Assembly (NCBI RefSeq): GCF_900114315.1
Contig: NZ_FOSQ01000001.1
Coordinates: 1,032,202 to 1,096,201 of the forward strand
Length of the DNA stretch: 64,000 nucleotides
Direction of reading: 5' to 3'
Source of the DNA: Falsiroseomonas stagni DSM 19981
Lineage (GTDB): Bacteria; Pseudomonadota; Alphaproteobacteria; Acetobacterales; Acetobacteraceae
The translations under genes and the position numbers were made by a program. Shown here piece after piece: positions 28,069 through 35,647 of the stretch. Within the stretch, counting starts at the first letter, position 1, and each line of letters starts with the position of its first letter. The notes beneath the pieces were generated by a model, which saw only the letters and a list, made by a program, of their open reading frames with translations, was not told the origin of the DNA and searched no databases.

Positions 28069-28109
28069 TCAGCATGAACGGGCGAACCCGTTCAGAATGA
28101 ACGCGCAAA
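28069..28109. repeat. 18-bp duplication of the carB gene end
   Basis: Bases 28092-28109 are the carB 3' end including its stop; 28069-28086 match at 15 of 18 positions, 23 bp downstream. On the minus strand both encode FARS, then F or C, then TGA. A GAACGGG/CCCGTTC stem (28076-28082 with 28087-28093) links the two copies. Confidence 0.7.
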
Positions 28110-31100
28110 ATAGGACTGGAGGGGCGCCACATCAAGGGTTCCGCCCTTCAGCGCCGCGATGGCATGCACCGCGGCCCGGGCACCGGCCAGGGTGGTGTAG
28201 TGCGGGATGCCATGCGTCAGCGCGCTGCGGCGGATGTCGAAGCTGTCCGTCACGGATTGCCCGCCACTCGCGGTGTTGATCACCAGCTGGATGGCGTCCG
28301 ACTTCATGGCGTCCACGCAATGCGGCCGGCCCTCGGCCACCTTGTTGACGACGGAACATTCGATGCCGACTTCCCGCAGCCGGGCCGCGGTGCCGCGCGT
28401 CGCCATCACCTTGAAGCCCATCTCCACCAGGCGCCGCGCCATGGTCACGGCGCCGGCCTTGTCGCTGTCCTTCACGGACAGGAAGGCGGTGCCGGATTCC
28501 GGCAGCTTCACGCCCGCGCCGAGCTGGGACTTCAGGAAGGCGCGTTCGAAGGACAGGTCGAGGCCCATCACCTCCCCGGTCGACTTCATCTCCGGCCCGA
28601 GGATCACATCGACATTCGGGAAGCGGTTGAAGGGGAAGACCGCTTCCTTCACCGCGACATGGCGCGACACCGCCGTGTCATCCAGCCCGAAGGCCTTGAG
28701 CCGCGCGCCCGCCATGACCAGCGCGCCGATCTTGGCCACCGCCACGCCGGTCGCCTTCGCCACGAAGGGCACGGTGCGGCTGGCGCGGGGGTTCACTTCC
28801 AGGACGAAGATCTCCCCGTCCTTCACGGCGTACTGGACATTCATCAGGCCCTTGACCTTGAGGGCCTTGGCCATCGCCTCCGTCTCCGCCTTCAGCTCCG
28901 TCACGATGGCGGGCGGCAGGGAATAGGGGGGCAGGGAGCAGGCGCTGTCGCCGGAATGGATGCCGGCTTCCTCGATATGCTCCATCACGCCGGCGACATA
29001 GACATCGCCCGTTTCGTCGCAGATGCAGTCCACATCCACTTCGATGGCATCGGCCAGGTACTGGTCGATCAGGATCGGGTTCTCGCCGGAGACCTTCACG
29101 GCTTCCGCGCCGAAGCGGCGGAGCTGTTCCTTGTTGTAGGCGATCTCCATCGCCCGGCCGCCGAGCACGTAGGAAGGCCGCACGACCACGGGGTAGCCGA
29201 TGCGCTCCGCCTCGACGAGGGCTTCGTCGAGATCGCGCGCGATCCCGTTCTGCGGCTGCTTCAGGCCAAGCTGCTTGAGCAACAGCTGGAAGCGTTCGCG
29301 ATCCTCCGCGATGTCGATCGCCTCGGCGGAGGTGCCCAGGATGGGAATGCCCGCCTTGTGCAGCGCCTGGGACAGCTTGAGCGGCGTCTGCCCGCCATAC
29401 TGCACGATGCAGCCCAGCAGTTCCCCGCTCTCCTGTTCCTTGCGGATGATGGCGATGACGTCCTCGCCCGTCAGCGGCTCGAAATACAGGCGGTCGCTGG
29501 TGTCGTAGTCGGTCGAGACCGTCTCCGGGTTGCAGTTCACCATGATGGTCTCGTAGCCGGCATCGCGCAGGGCGTAGCAGGCATGGACGCAGCAATAGTC
29601 GAACTCGATGCCCTGGCCGATCCGGTTCGGCCCGCCGCCAAGGATGATGACCTTCTGGCGCGTCGTCGGCCGGCTTTCGCATTCCGGCGTGCCGAAGCCG
29701 CCTTCATAGGTCGAGTACATGTAGGGCGTGTCGGAGGCGAATTCGGCGGCGCAGGTATCGATGCGCTTGAACACGGCATGGACGCCGAGCTTGTCGCGCG
29801 CCGCGAAGACCGCGGCTTCCGTCATGCCCGCCAGCTTCGCCAGCCGCTTGTCGCTGAAGCCCAGCGCCTTCAGCGCGCGGAACGCATGTGCCGTCTTCGG
29901 CAAACCCTCGGCCTTCACCTTGGCCTCGGCATCCACAATTCGGGAAATCTCGCGGATGAACCAGGGATCGAAGCGGCAGGCCTCGTGGATCTCCTCCACG
30001 CTCATCCCCGACCGCAGCGCCTGCGCCACGACCAGCGCGCGATCGGGCTTCGGCGTGGCCAGCGAGGTGCGGATGGCGGCATGCGATCCATCGCCCGGCA
30101 GCTCGATCTCATCGAGGCCGGAGAGACCCGTCTCCAGCCCCCGCAGGCCCTTCTGCAGGGCCTCGGCGAAGGACCGGCCGATGGCCATCGTCTCGCCCAC
30201 CGACTTCATGGAGGTCGTCAAGGTCGCCGGCGTGCCGGGGAACTTTTCGAAGGTGAAGCGGGGAATCTTCACCACGACATAGTCGATGGTGGGCTCGAAG
30301 GAAGCGGGCGTGACCTTGGTGATGTCGTTCGACAACTCGTCCAGCGTGTAGCCGACCGCCAGCTTCGCGGCGACCTTGGCGATGGGGAAGCCCGTGGCCT
30401 TCGACGCCAAGGCGGAGGAGCGGGAGACGCGCGGGTTCATCTCGATGACCACCATGCGGCCATCAACGGGGTTGATGCCGAACTGGACGTTCGAGCCACC
30501 GGTATCGACGCCGATCTCCCGCAGGCAGGCGATGCTGGCATCGCGCATCCGCTGGTATTCCTTGTCCGTCAGCGTCAGCGCCGGCGCGATCGTCACGCTG
30601 TCGCCGGTATGGACGCCCATCGGATCGAGGTTCTCGATGGAGCAGATGATGATGCAGTTGTCCGCGCTGTCGCGGACCACCTCCATCTCATACTCCTTCC
30701 AGCCCAGCACGCTTTCCTCGACCAGCACCTCGGTGGTCATGGAGGCATCGAGGCCGGAGGCGACGATCTGCTCGAACTCCTCCCGGTTATAGGCGATGCC
30801 GCCGCCGGTGCCGCCGAGGGTGAAGGAGGGGCGGATGACGCAGGGCAGGCCCACGAGTTCGAGCCCCGCGCGCGCTTCCTCCATGGAATGGGCGATGGCG
30901 GAGCGGGGGCTCTCGATGCCGATCTTGCTCATGGCATCGCGGAACTTGAGGCGATCCTCCGCCTTGTCGATCACCTCGGCCTTGGCGCCGATCAGCTCGC
31001 AATTGTACTTCTTCAGCGCGCCGGAGGCATCGAGCTTGAGGGCGGTGTTCAGCGCGGTCTGCCCGCCCATGGTCGGCAGCAGCGCGTCCGGCCGTTCCTT

Positions 31101-31337
31101 GGCGATGATCTTCTCGACGATCTCGGGCGTGATCGGCTCGATATAGGTCGCATCCGCGAGCCCCGGATCGGTCATGATGGTCGCGGGATTGCTGTTGACC
31201 AGGATGACGCGATAGCCCTCCGCCCGCAGCGCCTTGCAGGCCTGCGCGCCGGAATAGTCGAACTCACAGGCCTGGCCGATGACGATCGGGCCCGCGCCGA
31301 TGATGAGGATGGACTTGATGTCGGTGCGCTTCGGCAT
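28092..31337 (-). CDS. carB: carbamoyl-phosphate synthase large subunit
   Basis: A 1081-residue CarB that makes carbamoyl phosphate from ammonia, bicarbonate and two ATP for arginine and pyrimidine synthesis. The N-terminal half ([19 protein letters not shown]) and the second half ([19 protein letters not shown]) each carry an ATP-grasp domain (for example [17 protein letters not shown]). The C-terminal MGS-like allosteric domain ends with the FARSF tail. Full length, no damage. It starts 1 bp after the stop of a small membrane-protein gene and is separated from carA by two membrane-protein genes. Confidence 0.97.
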
Positions 31338-31338
31338 G

Positions 31339-31605
31339 TCAGGCTCCGGTCGATTTTGCTTGGCGCCGCGCGCTCATCAGCAGCAGCGGCAGGATCAGGG
31401 CGTGGGGCACGGCCCAGAAGAAGAAGGCGAGGGTGGCGGCATCGCCCATCATCAGCGTCGTCGCGCCATGCACGGTGACGGAGAGCGCGAAGGCGGAGAC
31501 GGCGGCGCGCACCGGCGGGAACAGCCGGCGGAGCGAGGAGGCGACGGTGAACAGCACCAGCCCCGAATAGGCCAGCGCGAAGATGCCAAGCGCGATGTCC
31601 ATCAT
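31339..31605 (-). CDS. small three-helix membrane protein inside the car operon
   Basis: An 88-residue protein with three likely transmembrane segments (about 4-24, 34-52 and 58-80) and a basic C-terminus. I do not recognise a family. The ATG at 31605 overlaps the stop of the LysE-family gene, and the stop lies 1 bp before carB, so it is translationally packed into the carA-carB run. Its position suggests a link to the exporter next to it. Confidence 0.75.
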
Positions 31606-32234
31606 GCCTTGCTCTCCGTCGCGAGTTTCACCGCCAGCAGCGCCAGCGCGCCGCCCAGCACCCAGCGCTGCACCGCCATCCAGAAGGGCTTGGTGGACAG
31701 GAACCGCGCCGTGCCCGCCGCACCCCAGACCAGCACCGCATCCCACAAGGTGCAGACCAGGATCTGCACCAGGCCGAGCATCGCCGCCTGCATGAACAGG
31801 CTGCCGCGATCGGGGTCGAGGAAGGGCGGCAGCACCGCCATGTAGAACAGCGCCACCTTCGGGTTCAGCGCGGCCGTCGCGAAGCCCACGATGAACAGGC
31901 GCGCCGCCGGTTCGCGCGGCATCGGCCGCGGGCTGAACAGGGGCTGCCCGCCGGGCCGCACACATTGCCAGGCCATGAACATCAGATAGGCCGCGCCACC
32001 CAGCCGCAGCACGTCCCAGGCATAGGGCACCGCCAGCAGCGCCGCCGTGATGCCGGCCGCGGCGCAGACCATGATGGTCAGCGATCCCGCCTGGCACCCC
32101 GCCAGCGACACCATCCCCGCCCCCGTCCCCTGCGCCAGCGAACGCGAGACGAGGTAGAGCATGTTCGGCCCCGGCGTGACCGCCAGGCCGAGCGACAGCA
32201 GCGCGAAGACGAGGATGGTGTCGGCGGAGGGCAT
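31602..32234 (-). CDS. LysE/RhtB-family amino-acid exporter
   Basis: A 210-residue membrane protein of the LysE superfamily with about six helices and the signature VTPGPNMLYLVSRSL near residues 19-33. The LNPKVALFYMAVLPPFLDP block is also typical. Members export amino acids such as lysine, arginine, threonine or homoserine lactone. It sits 8 bp downstream of carA and overlaps the next gene, so an export role connected with the arginine/pyrimidine branch point is possible but unproven. Confidence 0.9.
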   Translation of the reverse strand: MPSADTILVFALLSLGLAVTPGPNMLYLVSRSLAQGTGAGMVSLAGCQAGSLTIMVCAAAGITAALLAVPYAWDVLRLGGAAYLMFMAWQCVRPGGQPLFSPRPMPREPAARLFIVGFATAALNPKVALFYMAVLPPFLDPDRGSLFMQAAMLGLVQILVCTLWDAVLVWGAAGTARFLSTKPFWMAVQRWVLGGALALLAVKLATESKA

Positions 32235-32242
32235 GGCCCGCC

Positions 32243-33631
<1,389 letters not shown>

Positions 33632-33644
33632 GGGCCGTCCTATG

Positions 33645-33661
33645 TGGGAAAAAACTTCCGC
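33645..33661. promoter_or_regulatory. 17-bp pseudo-palindrome 1 in the carA/yqeY intergenic region
   Basis: TGGGAAAAAACTTCCGC lies 14 bp upstream of the carA start codon. Its inverted half-sites (GGAA and TTCC) flank a 5-bp A-rich centre. It matches the reverse complement of the second site in 14 of 17 positions, so the two are related elements in opposite orientation. Confidence 0.55.
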
Positions 33662-33681
33662 CCGCAACCTGAGTCTGCCTC

Positions 33682-33698
33682 TGGGAAGATTTTTCCCA
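33682..33698. promoter_or_regulatory. 17-bp pseudo-palindrome 2 in the carA/yqeY intergenic region
   Basis: TGGGAAGATTTTTCCCA has 6-bp perfect inverted arms (TGGGAA/TTCCCA) around a 5-bp centre. Its centre is 37 bp from that of site 1. It could overlap the -35 region for yqeY on one strand and lies upstream of carA on the other. A 17-bp dyad is the usual size of operators for Cro-type helix-turn-helix dimers. Confidence 0.6.
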
Positions 33699-33742: not shown

Positions 33743-34207
33743 ATGGCCGACGATCTCCGCAGCCGTTTCACCGAGGCTCTCAAGGCCGCCATGATCGGCA
33801 AGGATGCGCCGAAGACCTCTGCCATCCGCATGATCACGGCCAAGCTCAAGGACATCGACATCGCCGCCCGCCCATCGGGCGTGGACAAGGTGCCGGACGA
33901 CCAGATCGTCGCCATGCTGCGCGGCATGGTGAAGTCCCGGGCGGAGAGCGCCACCATGTATCGCCAGGGCGGCCGCCCGGAACTGGCGGAGAAGGAGGAG
34001 TTCGAGATCGCGACGATCGAATCCTTCCTCCCGTCGCAGATGGACGCCGCCGCCATGGAGGCGGCCGTCGCCGATGCCGTTGCGGAATCCGGCGCGACCT
34101 CGGTGAAGGAGATGGGCAAGGTCATGGCAGTGCTGCGCGCGAAGCACGGCGCGGTGCTGGACATGGCCAAGGCCGGGCCGCTGGTGAAGGCCAAGCTGGG
34201 GGGCTAG
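33743..34207 (+). CDS. yqeY: GatB/YqeY domain protein
   Basis: A 154-residue protein of the YqeY family: RFTEALKAAMIGKDAPKTSAIRMI at the N-terminus and the FLPSQMDAAAMEAAVADAV and KEMGKVMAVLRAKHG blocks near the C-terminus, related to the tail domain of GatB. Its role is not well established; a link to tRNA-dependent amidation is presumed. GGAGG lies 8 bp before the ATG. Its gene commonly stands next to dnaG and rpoD; here a reversed pentapeptide-repeat gene lies between. Its stop is inside the first copy of a 53-bp duplication. Confidence 0.93.
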   Translation: MADDLRSRFTEALKAAMIGKDAPKTSAIRMITAKLKDIDIAARPSGVDKVPDDQIVAMLRGMVKSRAESATMYRQGGRPELAEKEEFEIATIESFLPSQMDAAAMEAAVADAVAESGATSVKEMGKVMAVLRAKHGAVLDMAKAGPLVKAKLGG

Positions 34208-34310
34208 CCCTCCCGCCCCGGCAGCACCAGGCCCTCGGCGCCCACCAGCACGCTGGTGGGGCTAGCCCTCCCGCCCCGGCAGCACCAGGCCCTCGGCGCC
34301 CACCAGCACG
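34200..34310. repeat. 53-bp exact direct duplication at converging gene ends
   Basis: Bases 34200-34252 and 34258-34310 are identical, separated by 5 bp. The second copy is the true 3' end of the pentapeptide-repeat gene (stop at 34262-34264). The first copy holds the yqeY stop (34205-34207) and repeats the last 15 codons and stop of the pentapeptide gene on the minus strand. The palindromic core GGGCTAGCCC supplies a TAG to both strands. Confidence 0.95.
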
Positions 34311-35647
34311 GCGCCGCGCAGGTCGGCGCGGCGCAAATCCGCCATGGTCAGCGTGGCGTCGGTCAGGTCGGCGCCCGCCAGCCCCGCTTCCCGCAGATCG
34401 GCCTGCGTCAGGTCGGCATCGGCCAGGCGGGCCTCGGCCAGTTCCGCTCCCACCAGCTTCGCCCGCACCAGCCGGGCGCTGGTCAGGTTGGTGGGCCAGG
34501 TCTGGCCGTGCTTCAGCGCCATCGGGCCGGCTGCGGCCCGCGTCAGGTCGGCCTCGTTCAGCGATGCCCTGACCAGGCTCGCGCCGCGCAGGTTGACCCG
34601 CGCCATCTTCGCCCCGCGGAGGTCGGCGGTGTTCAGATCCGCCATGGCCAGCACCGTGCCGGTCAGGTCGCAGCCGCGCAGCACGGCATGCTTCAGCACC
34701 GCCGCCGCCAGATTCACCCCGGACAGGTCCAGCCCGGTCAGGTCGCAGGCCGAGAGGTCGGCGCGCTGCCCCGCCCGCCCATTCGTGCGGATCCAGTCCT
34801 GGTGGAGCGCCACGGCCTGGCTCACCGCATCCTCCAGATTCTCCAGCCGGCGCGTCATCGCCGCGCCATCCAGGATGGCGGAGCCCAGATCCACCTCGTC
34901 CAGCAGCGCGCCCAGCAGGTTGGCGCCGGACAGGTTGGTGGCGCGCAGCAGCACCCGGCTGAGGATCGCCCCCTCCAGCACCGCGCCTTCCAGATTCGCC
35001 TCCGACAGGTCGGCCCCTTCCAGGTTGCAGCCGCTGAGGTCGGTGCGGCTGAGATCGGCCCGCACGAAGACCGCCTCCCGCAGGTTGGAATCACGCAGGT
35101 CGGTCTGCACGATGAAGGCGTTGGAGAGCTTGGCGCGGGTCAGATTCGCATTGGCGGCCGATGCCTCCGACAATTCGCCGCGCCCGCCCATGGCGGTGGC
35201 CGGCACCAGTTCGCCGCCCTTGCTGCGCACCAGATGGCCGTCCCGCAAATCGGCGCCCGTCATGTCGGCGCGCACCAGCCGGGCGCCGAGCAGCGAGGCG
35301 CCGCGCAAATCCGCCTTGTTCAACCTCGCCCGCGTCAACTCCGCCTTGCGGAGATTGGCGCCGAACAGGCAGGCGTCGCGCAGATCCGCCTCCGCCAGCA
35401 TCGCGCCCTCCAGCCTGGCGCCGGTCAGGTCCGCGCCGGCGAGCACCGCGCCGCGGAGATCGGCATGGGCGAGGTCGGCAAACTTGAAGGCAGCCCGCTT
35501 GCCGCCGCGTTCCCCACGCAGGTGGCGGGCATGAAGGGCCAGCGCGGCCGCGATCTCCGCCGGGGAAACGGGGTGGTAGTCGATCGCCAAGGCCTCTCGC
35601 CAACTGCTGCCATGGCGGGGCGGGGGTGGGGAGGGGGCATGGGTCAC
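34262..35647 (-). CDS. pentapeptide-repeat protein
   Basis: A 461-residue protein. Most of it after residue 55 is A(D/N)Lxx pentapeptide repeats (for example ADLRGAVLAGADLTGARLEG), which form a right-handed quadrilateral beta-helix. The repeats are interrupted at about 140-160 and by a helical stretch near 257-293 (LENLEDAVSQAVALHQDW). Some relatives protect gyrase by mimicking DNA, but most have no known role. The start is GTG at 35647 behind AGGGGG. It is transcribed against yqeY, dnaG and rpoD and looks inserted into that conserved order. Confidence 0.9.
   Translation of the reverse strand: MTHAPSPPPPRHGSSWREALAIDYHPVSPAEIAAALALHARHLRGERGGKRAAFKFADLAHADLRGAVLAGADLTGARLEGAMLAEADLRDACLFGANLRKAELTRARLNKADLRGASLLGARLVRADMTGADLRDGHLVRSKGGELVPATAMGGRGELSEASAANANLTRAKLSNAFIVQTDLRDSNLREAVFVRADLSRTDLSGCNLEGADLSEANLEGAVLEGAILSRVLLRATNLSGANLLGALLDEVDLGSAILDGAAMTRRLENLEDAVSQAVALHQDWIRTNGRAGQRADLSACDLTGLDLSGVNLAAAVLKHAVLRGCDLTGTVLAMADLNTADLRGAKMARVNLRGASLVRASLNEADLTRAAAGPMALKHGQTWPTNLTSARLVRAKLVGAELAEARLADADLTQADLREAGLAGADLTDATLTMADLRRADLRGAVLVGAEGLVLPGREG

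What the first reader, a model, noticed from the sequence alone, without database searches (positions are those of the whole stretch)
33645..33698. Two related 17-bp palindromes between carA and yqeY, candidate operators of the CarA HTH
TGGGAAAAAACTTCCGC and, in opposite orientation, TGGGAAGATTTTTCCCA match at 14 of 17 positions with centres 37 bp apart, directly upstream of carA. Cro-type HTH dimers typically bind 17-bp dyads. Together with the HTH on CarA this suggests enzyme-mediated autoregulation, which I have not seen described.
Basis: partly seen in the sequence, partly recalled or inferred. Interest (0 to 1): 0.75.

Follow-up and report, generated by a model that had tools for sequence, protein, structure and literature searches.

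The report
Self-regulating carbamoyl phosphate synthase gene
Bacteria of one family appear to have a phage-type DNA-binding domain fused to a key enzyme of arginine and pyrimidine synthesis, and the paired DNA sites in that enzyme's own promoter match this domain so closely across species that the enzyme most likely switches down its own gene.

Summary
Two 17-bp dyads (33645-33661, 33682-33698; centres 37 bp apart, 14/17 match) lie between carA and yqeY and are not chance. CarA carries an N-terminal Cro-family HTH. The fusion is in 141 of 150 sampled Acetobacteraceae genomes. Upstream, 133 of 141 have a TGGGAA-N5-TTCCCA dyad (>=10/12 arm positions), 121 have two at >=9/12; downstream control 0 of 141. 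In 84 loci the proximal dyad is exactly the 17-bp spacer between a conserved TTG -35 and TATAnT -10: a repressor position on a probably leaderless promoter. Dyads track the HTH: none at 15 outgroup carA genes, none at three family carA genes without HTH. Operator half-site position 2 varies most with HTH residue 33 (Q:G, S:C), mainly through one clade. New here: the HTH-CarA linker often holds an in-frame start with Shine-Dalgarno site (62 of 63 named, 58 of 110 family loci), so carA probably makes both HTH-CarA (repressor) and HTH-less CarA (enzyme). Binding, repression and effector are inferred, not shown.

The parts
33645..33661 (-). proximal operator dyad O1 (TGGGAAAAAACTTCCGC on +), centre -22 from the carA ATG; fills the spacer of the carA promoter
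33682..33698 (.). distal operator dyad O2 (TGGGAAGATTTTTCCCA on +), centre 37 bp upstream of O1
33662..33667 (-). carA -35 element (TTGCGG), directly 5' of O1; TTG conserved at 99/94/95% in 84 relatives
   Evidence: sequence; profile
33639..33644 (-). carA -10 element (CATAGG here; TATAnT in relatives), directly 3' of O1, 7 nt before the ATG, so a probably leaderless transcript
   Evidence: sequence; profile
32243..33631 (-). carA long form: HTH-CarA, 462 aa, stop included
33464..33622 (-). Cro/carph-isopro HTH domain of CarA (residues 4-56)
   Evidence: (NF046037, 64.5 bits against cut-off 38)
33530..33559 (-). recognition helix (residues 25-34 in the model); residue Q33 is encoded at 33533-33535
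   Evidence: helix 25-34; covariation
33386..33463 (-). linker between HTH and CarA (residues 57-82); model confidence under 50 at 59-77
33419..33422 (-). putative internal Shine-Dalgarno GGAG in the linker
33407..33409 (-). putative internal GTG start (residue V75) of HTH-less CarA, 9 nt after GGAG
33743..34207 (+). yqeY, divergent neighbour; found adjacent in 125 of 141 relatives and in 13 of 15 outgroup loci that have no dyad
28092..31337 (-). carB (named by eye from its translation), same strand downstream of carA; no dyad of its own found in the window

Best explanation
The two dyads are operators of the Cro-type HTH that is fused to the N-terminus of CarA. A dimer of HTH-CarA binds the proximal dyad, which is the 17-bp spacer between the -35 and -10 elements of carA's own promoter, and shuts out RNA polymerase; a second dimer on the distal dyad about 38 bp upstream strengthens binding. 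The result is negative autoregulation of carA, and of carB if it is co-transcribed. The transcript is probably leaderless, so the HTH start codon is at or next to the transcription start. A second start inside the linker, with its own Shine-Dalgarno site and near where carA starts in relatives without the HTH, probably makes ordinary CarA enzyme, so one gene gives both repressor (long form) and enzyme (short form). Shown by sequence: the fusion, the conserved dyads, the promoter geometry, co-absence with the HTH, the association of residue 33 with operator position 2, the internal start signals. Inferred: binding, repression, cooperation of the two sites, leaderless start, two products, and any control by UMP, ornithine or complex state.
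For: Fusion in 141 of 150 Acetobacteraceae genomes, one match each, with an open frame of 189 aa or more around the HTH in all and 442 or more in all but four. Dyads: 80 of 80 named loci with >=1 and 75 of 80 with >=2 at >=10/12 (controls 0, 0 and 1 of 80); 133 of 141 with >=1 at >=10/12 and 121 of 141 with two at >=9/12 in the family sample, downstream control 0 of 141. Promoter: TTG at 99/94/95% directly before and TATAnT directly after the dyad, in 84 loci. Specific to this gene: 67 of 75 listed exact sites lie within 300 bp upstream of HTH-carA. Co-absence: 0 of 15 outgroup carA genes have a TGGGAA-type site >=9/12 or a GGAA-N5-TTCC core >=7/8, against 141 of 141 with the HTH; the family carA genes without the HTH (G067 and G153 of one genus, G506 of another) have no site >=10/12, and G067 and G153 keep divergent yqeY. 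Half-site position 2: Q33 471 G / 48 C, S33 5 G / 73 C; highest mutual information with position 2 is residue 33. HTH nearest to phage Cro proteins. Internal start: 62 of 63 named and 58 of 110 family loci.
Against: No binding or expression data. The residue 33 association rests mostly on one clade; independent pairs on the tree are too few for significance, and there are exceptions (L397, L399 with Q33 and mostly C2; L391 with S33 and mixed sites; T33 pair L392/L393 and Q33 loci L376, L384, L398 mixed). In lambda/434-type HTHs, as recalled, the N-terminal end of the recognition helix faces the outer bases, so contact of residue 33 with outer position 2 is not the obvious geometry. In the window the proximal dyad is degenerate and the -10 is poor. 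In 49 of the 133 loci with a >=10/12 dyad the one nearest the start is not at -20 to -24, so the leaderless geometry is not universal. In 52 of 110 family linkers no start with Shine-Dalgarno core was found. G506 without the HTH still has two weak sites at 9/12 and two GGAA-N5-TTCC cores at 7/8 in an AT-rich region.
Confidence: 0.82

Rival explanations
1. The dyads are bound by a separate regulator (for example of pyrimidine or arginine synthesis), and the HTH on CarA is unrelated to them.
For: No binding data; the dyads look like ordinary repressor sites; the divergent neighbour yqeY could share control.
Against: The dyads are found with the HTH and not without it: 0 of 15 outgroup carA genes and 0 of three family carA genes lacking the HTH at >=10/12. 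67 of 75 listed exact sites sit at HTH-carA, so a wider regulon is not seen. The operator base varies with an HTH residue.
Confidence: 0.08
2. The dyads serve yqeY, or both divergent genes, and carA only happens to be next to them.
For: yqeY is found divergently adjacent in 125 of 141 relatives; in the window the distal dyad is close to yqeY.
Against: 14 of 16 loci in which no adjacent yqeY was found still have a dyad at >=10/12; the proximal dyad is locked into the carA promoter whereas no element lies at a fixed distance from the distal dyad on the yqeY side (109 contexts); 13 of 15 outgroup loci and G067, G153 have divergent yqeY but no dyad.
Confidence: 0.04
3. HTH-CarA binds the dyads but activates, or only shapes DNA, rather than represses.
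For: The distal dyad lies at an upstream distance also used by activators (recalled); no expression data.
Against: The proximal site fills a 17-bp spacer, the standard length (recalled), so binding there should exclude polymerase and no spacer correction is needed.
Confidence: 0.06

Closest known systems
PutA and BirA (enzymes that repress their own operon)
   Same: One chain holds a metabolic enzyme and a DNA-binding function and acts at an operon of its own pathway. PutA and BirA are described so in PMC6978683 (passages seen).
   Different: Different enzyme and DNA-binding fold (Cro family); here an internal start probably also makes enzyme without the DNA-binding domain; ligand control unknown.
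E. coli carAB control (ArgR, PurR, RutR, IHF, PepA, PyrH)
   Same: Same enzyme step; enzymes (PepA, PyrH) also take part in control there (PMC6245113, passages seen).
   Different: In E. coli separate proteins control carAB; in Acetobacteraceae the regulator would be CarA itself through a fused HTH.
Phage Cro proteins (Xfaso 1, N15, P22)
   Same: HTH sequence and fold; 17-bp two-fold symmetric operators (Cro operator length recalled).
   Different: A domain fused to a cellular enzyme with apparently one target; not linked to a lysis-lysogeny switch.
NCBIfam NF046037 carph-isopro domain
   Same: The CarA HTH scores 64.5 bits against a cut-off of 38.
   Different: The model's description as returned gives no function or operator; no paper holding the name was found in the library searched.

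Membership tests
CarA, glutaminase subunit of carbamoyl phosphate synthase | CPSase small-chain domain plus class I glutamine amidotransferase domain | tested here: met
   TIGR01368 456.5 bits (cut-off 307); PF00988 and PF00117
CarA, glutaminase subunit of carbamoyl phosphate synthase | conserved Cys-His-Glu of the amidotransferase | tested here: met
   C351, H435, E437 invariant in 29 aligned sequences; triad roles recalled
Cro / carph-isopro HTH | NF046037 model above its cut-off | tested here: met
   64.5 bits, cut-off 38
Cro / carph-isopro HTH | Pfam P22_Cro or YdaS_toxin above gathering score | tested here: not met
   28.7 against 30.2 and 29.2 against 30: just below
Cro / carph-isopro HTH | Cro-like fold | tested here: met
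   model pLDDT 81.8; best Foldseek hits Xfaso 1, N15 and P22 Cro, probability 0.95-1.0 but E 0.1-0.4
Cro / carph-isopro HTH | binds operator DNA as a dimer | not testable with these tools
   needs gel shift or footprint
Enzyme that represses its own operon (PutA/BirA kind) | enzyme and DNA-binding domain in one chain | tested here: met
   one frame through HTH, linker and CarA in 29 of 29 aligned sequences; long open frames in the family sample
Enzyme that represses its own operon (PutA/BirA kind) | conserved operators in its own promoter, overlapping core elements | tested here: met
   (as sequence; binding not tested)
Enzyme that represses its own operon (PutA/BirA kind) | repression of the promoter by the enzyme | not testable with these tools
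   needs reporter assay
Enzyme that represses its own operon (PutA/BirA kind) | DNA binding responds to ligand or enzyme state | not testable with these tools
   UMP, ornithine, CarB effects unknown here

The most novel reading that the evidence does not exclude
In a whole bacterial family carA is a two-product gene. A leaderless transcript gives HTH-CarA, a single-target repressor that carries the enzyme as its sensing part; the internal start gives plain CarA. Because CPSase changes its oligomeric state with UMP and ornithine in E. coli (PMC6245113), incorporation of HTH-CarA into the enzyme could tie carA transcription directly to the abundance or allosteric state of carbamoyl phosphate synthase, replacing the many-protein control seen in E. 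coli. HTH residue 33 and operator position 2 have changed together in at least one clade.
Probability: 0.45. Interest if true: 0.87.

Novelty: new variant of a known kind. Interest (0 to 1): 0.77.

Why it matters
Carbamoyl phosphate feeds both arginine and pyrimidine synthesis, and control of carAB in E. coli needs several proteins. A family in which the enzyme carries its own repressor domain would be a simple solution to the same problem and a clear case of a phage-type regulator taken over by a core metabolic gene. The conserved operator pair and the natural residue 33/position 2 change make binding and specificity directly testable with short DNA probes. The internal start would show how a gene can gain a regulator without tying every enzyme molecule to it.

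Tried and rejected
Rejected: chance; yqeY as the target of the dyads; a general regulon. Eight of the 75 listed exact sites were not at HTH-carA; I looked at four of them: L345 (G159) and L078 (G029) lie inside long open frames, L346 (G103) lies 26 nt before a start in a frame that looks like nuoB, L347 (G068) lies between open frames near a resolvase-like gene. The other four (in G099, G072, G011, G183) were not examined. The one-mismatch sites of the window's own genome (L002, L003, L004) lie inside long open frames.

G110's 11 exact sites are a dispersed repeat (9 TGGGAAGGTGTTTCCCA, 2 TGGGAAGGTTTTTCCCA); its carA has AGGGAAAAAACTTCCCA. G027 first looked like an exception (130 bp scanned) but has dyads at -162 (11/12) and -121 (9/12).

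Spacing in strict helical phase was considered: most pairs are 37-41 bp (100 of 121), a few 48-50, but 43-44 also occur, so I do not claim it. Residue 24 as specificity residue: weaker, since S24 with Q33 still has G2 (48 G, 5 C). Phylogenetic independence test of the association: not significant; its tree left out 24 loci of 107 whose catalytic part was too short or not recognised (12 of them S33), one locus without HTH and 3 duplicates.

Errors of mine: searches used wrong coordinates; one search did not turn minus-strand loci (redone); one search used a wrong frame of YqeY and missed 13 HTHs (redone; its yqeY counts are void); one region (L385, 100 bases) was a useless fetch. In one search the printout for L241 and L242 failed; they were read and checked. 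Genomes without the HTH in which carA was not found or is cut by a contig end were not counted as losses (G033, G064, G077, G107, G113, G147, G183; 10 of 11); 4 more HTH-less genomes were not listed and not examined.

Literature: searches listed no paper; one search listed three, of which I saw passages of PMC6245113 and only the listing of PMC4357382 and PMC13328217. None of what I saw reports an HTH fused to CarA or CarA autoregulation. Subscription journals are mostly outside the library.

Full report
Observation. A degenerate pattern finds only these two sites in the window; shuffles give 0.10 on average and 0 of 100 reach the observed count. The whole genome has one exact TGGGAANNNNNTTCCCA, the distal dyad.

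The protein. The long carA frame (32243-33631, minus strand, 462 aa) is a full CPSase small subunit with an N-terminal HTH: NF046037 carph-isopro 64.5 bits against a cut-off of 38; Pfam Cro and YdaS models fall just below their cut-offs. The nearest solved structures are phage Cro proteins by sequence (E 1e-4 to 0.01) and by fold (probability 0.95-1.0, E only 0.1-0.4). The model has helices 4-11, 14-21, 25-34, 39-49 and a low-confidence linker at 59-77 in the full protein.

Distribution. HTH-CarA is in 141 of 150 Acetobacteraceae genomes, one match each, and an HTH of this kind in 373 of 397 with a second query. In 289 genomes spread over the class only 10 match at all; four are Acetobacteraceae HTH-CarA (87-116 bits), and the other six score 31-43 bits. 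Two of those six that I read (L220, L223) are short separate HTH frames; the other four were not read.

Dyads in relatives. In 80 named loci chosen by HTH similarity only (the best 80 of 345), 80 of 80 have a site with >=10 of 12 arm positions within 250 bp and 75 have two; the same scan gives 0 of 80 downstream, 0 of 80 on reversed and 1 of 80 on shuffled sequence (in 3 of the 80 the frame ends before the CarA part could be recognised). In all 141 family loci, 133 have >=1 at >=10/12, 94 have two at >=10/12, 121 have two at >=9/12; downstream 0 of 141, reversed 1 of 141, shuffles 25 of 2820 (for >=9/12: reversed 15 of 141, shuffles 284 of 2820). The two sets overlap in species. A GGAA-N5-TTCC core is present at 8 of 8 positions in 135 and at 7 or more in 141 of 141, including the 8 loci without a >=10/12 site.

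Promoter. Aligning 84 distinct loci on a proximal dyad at -20 to -24 shows TTG at 99/94/95% in the three positions that open the hexamer directly before the dyad and T61 A93 T56 A55 n T42 directly after it. There the dyad is therefore the 17-bp promoter spacer. The start codon follows the -10 by 6-7 nt, which implies a leaderless transcript; this is inference. In 49 of the 133 loci with a >=10/12 dyad the one nearest the start lies elsewhere. In the window the elements are TTGCGG (33662-33667) and CATAGG (33639-33644).

Which gene and which protein. Divergent yqeY was found in the fetched upstream DNA in 125 of 141; of the 16 others 14 keep a dyad at >=10/12. No element is at fixed distance from the distal dyad on the yqeY side (109 contexts). 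Fifteen outgroup carA genes have no TGGGAA-type site >=9/12 (12, three) and no GGAA-N5-TTCC core >=7/8 in 400 bp, although 13 of the 15 have yqeY divergently upstream. Three family carA genes lack the HTH. G067 and G153 (one genus) have no site >=9/12, no core >=7/8, and keep divergent yqeY. G506 (another genus, whose other sampled members have the HTH) has none >=10/12, but two weak sites at 9/12 and two cores at 7/8 in an AT-rich region. Of 75 listed exact sites in 57 genomes, 67 lie within 300 bp upstream of HTH-carA (the list was cut).

Association of protein and operator. In 171 distinct loci (enriched on purpose for S33 types), half-site position 2 is G 471 / C 48 with Q33 and G 5 / C 73 with S33; A33 C 4 / G 0; H33 3/3; T33 G 5 / C 3. 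Residue 33 has the highest mutual information with position 2 (0.318; next 0.206 residue 35, 0.177 residue 24). On a CarA tree of 79 rows the non-Q state needs 5 changes, 17 of its 22 rows fall in one clade, and the independent-pairs test cannot reach significance. I take this as strong but not phylogenetically independent support.

Internal start. The linker varies in length and sequence, yet an in-frame ATG/GTG/TTG with a Shine-Dalgarno core 4-11 nt before it is present in 62 of 63 named and 58 of 110 family loci (17 of 80 and 31 of 141 were dropped because the start of the CarA part was not recognised or the fetched stretch was too short). By codon: 60 of 142 in-frame start codons in family linkers and 66 of 113 in named ones, against 1 of 82 and 1 of 32 in the +1 frame, 3 of 179 and 0 of 92 inside the HTH, 2 of 134 and 10 of 133 inside CarA. 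In the window it is GTG 33409-33407 with GGAG 33422-33419. carA genes without the HTH have start codons near this place. The shared Glu codon could in part reflect protein constraint, so two products are likely, not shown.

Mechanism. HTH-CarA binding to the spacer should exclude RNA polymerase; the second dyad should help by cooperation. Effector control is open: in E. coli UMP favours the heterodimer and ornithine the tetramer (PMC6245113, passages seen), but which state would bind DNA here is unknown.

Known or new. Enzymes that repress their own operon are known (PutA, BirA; PMC6978683, passages seen). E. coli carAB uses separate proteins (PMC6245113, passages). Seven full-text searches gave no account of HTH-CarA in what I saw. 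I rate it a new variant of a known kind.

Noticed in passing
window 34200-34252 and 34258-34310: A 53-bp stretch occurs twice, identical, 58 bp apart, at the end of yqeY and the end of the convergent gene (34262-35647, pentapeptide-repeat-like by eye); looks like a recent local duplication.
   Followed up: partly
genome handle G110 (L173, L176, L178, L180, L182, L184, L186): A dispersed palindromic repeat TGGGAAGGTGTTTCCCA / TGGGAAGGTTTTTCCCA occurs 11 times exactly; it mimics the operator arms and may be a REP-like element.
   Followed up: partly
L123 (Siccirubricoccus sp. G192) and L210 (G126, same coordinates): The HTH-CarA frame ends early (189 aa from the start used, open frame 220): a frameshift in carA or an assembly error.
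   Followed up: no
L192 (G027), about -162 and -121 from the carA ATG: The dyads lie far upstream in this AT-richer genome, implying a leader in place of a leaderless start.
   Followed up: partly
L058 (G000:C24:222420-222560, minus): Second, weaker carph-isopro-like HTH in the window's genome (32.6 bits, below cut-off) in a small separate frame without CarA.
   Followed up: partly
L220, L223: Short separate HTH frames in other Alphaproteobacteria with the same PPRHW ending as many CarA HTHs; possible kin of the source of the fused domain.
   Followed up: no
window 31602-32234: A 210-aa frame that looks like a LysE-type exporter by eye lies between carA and carB on the same strand, so carA and carB are not directly adjacent.
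   Followed up: no
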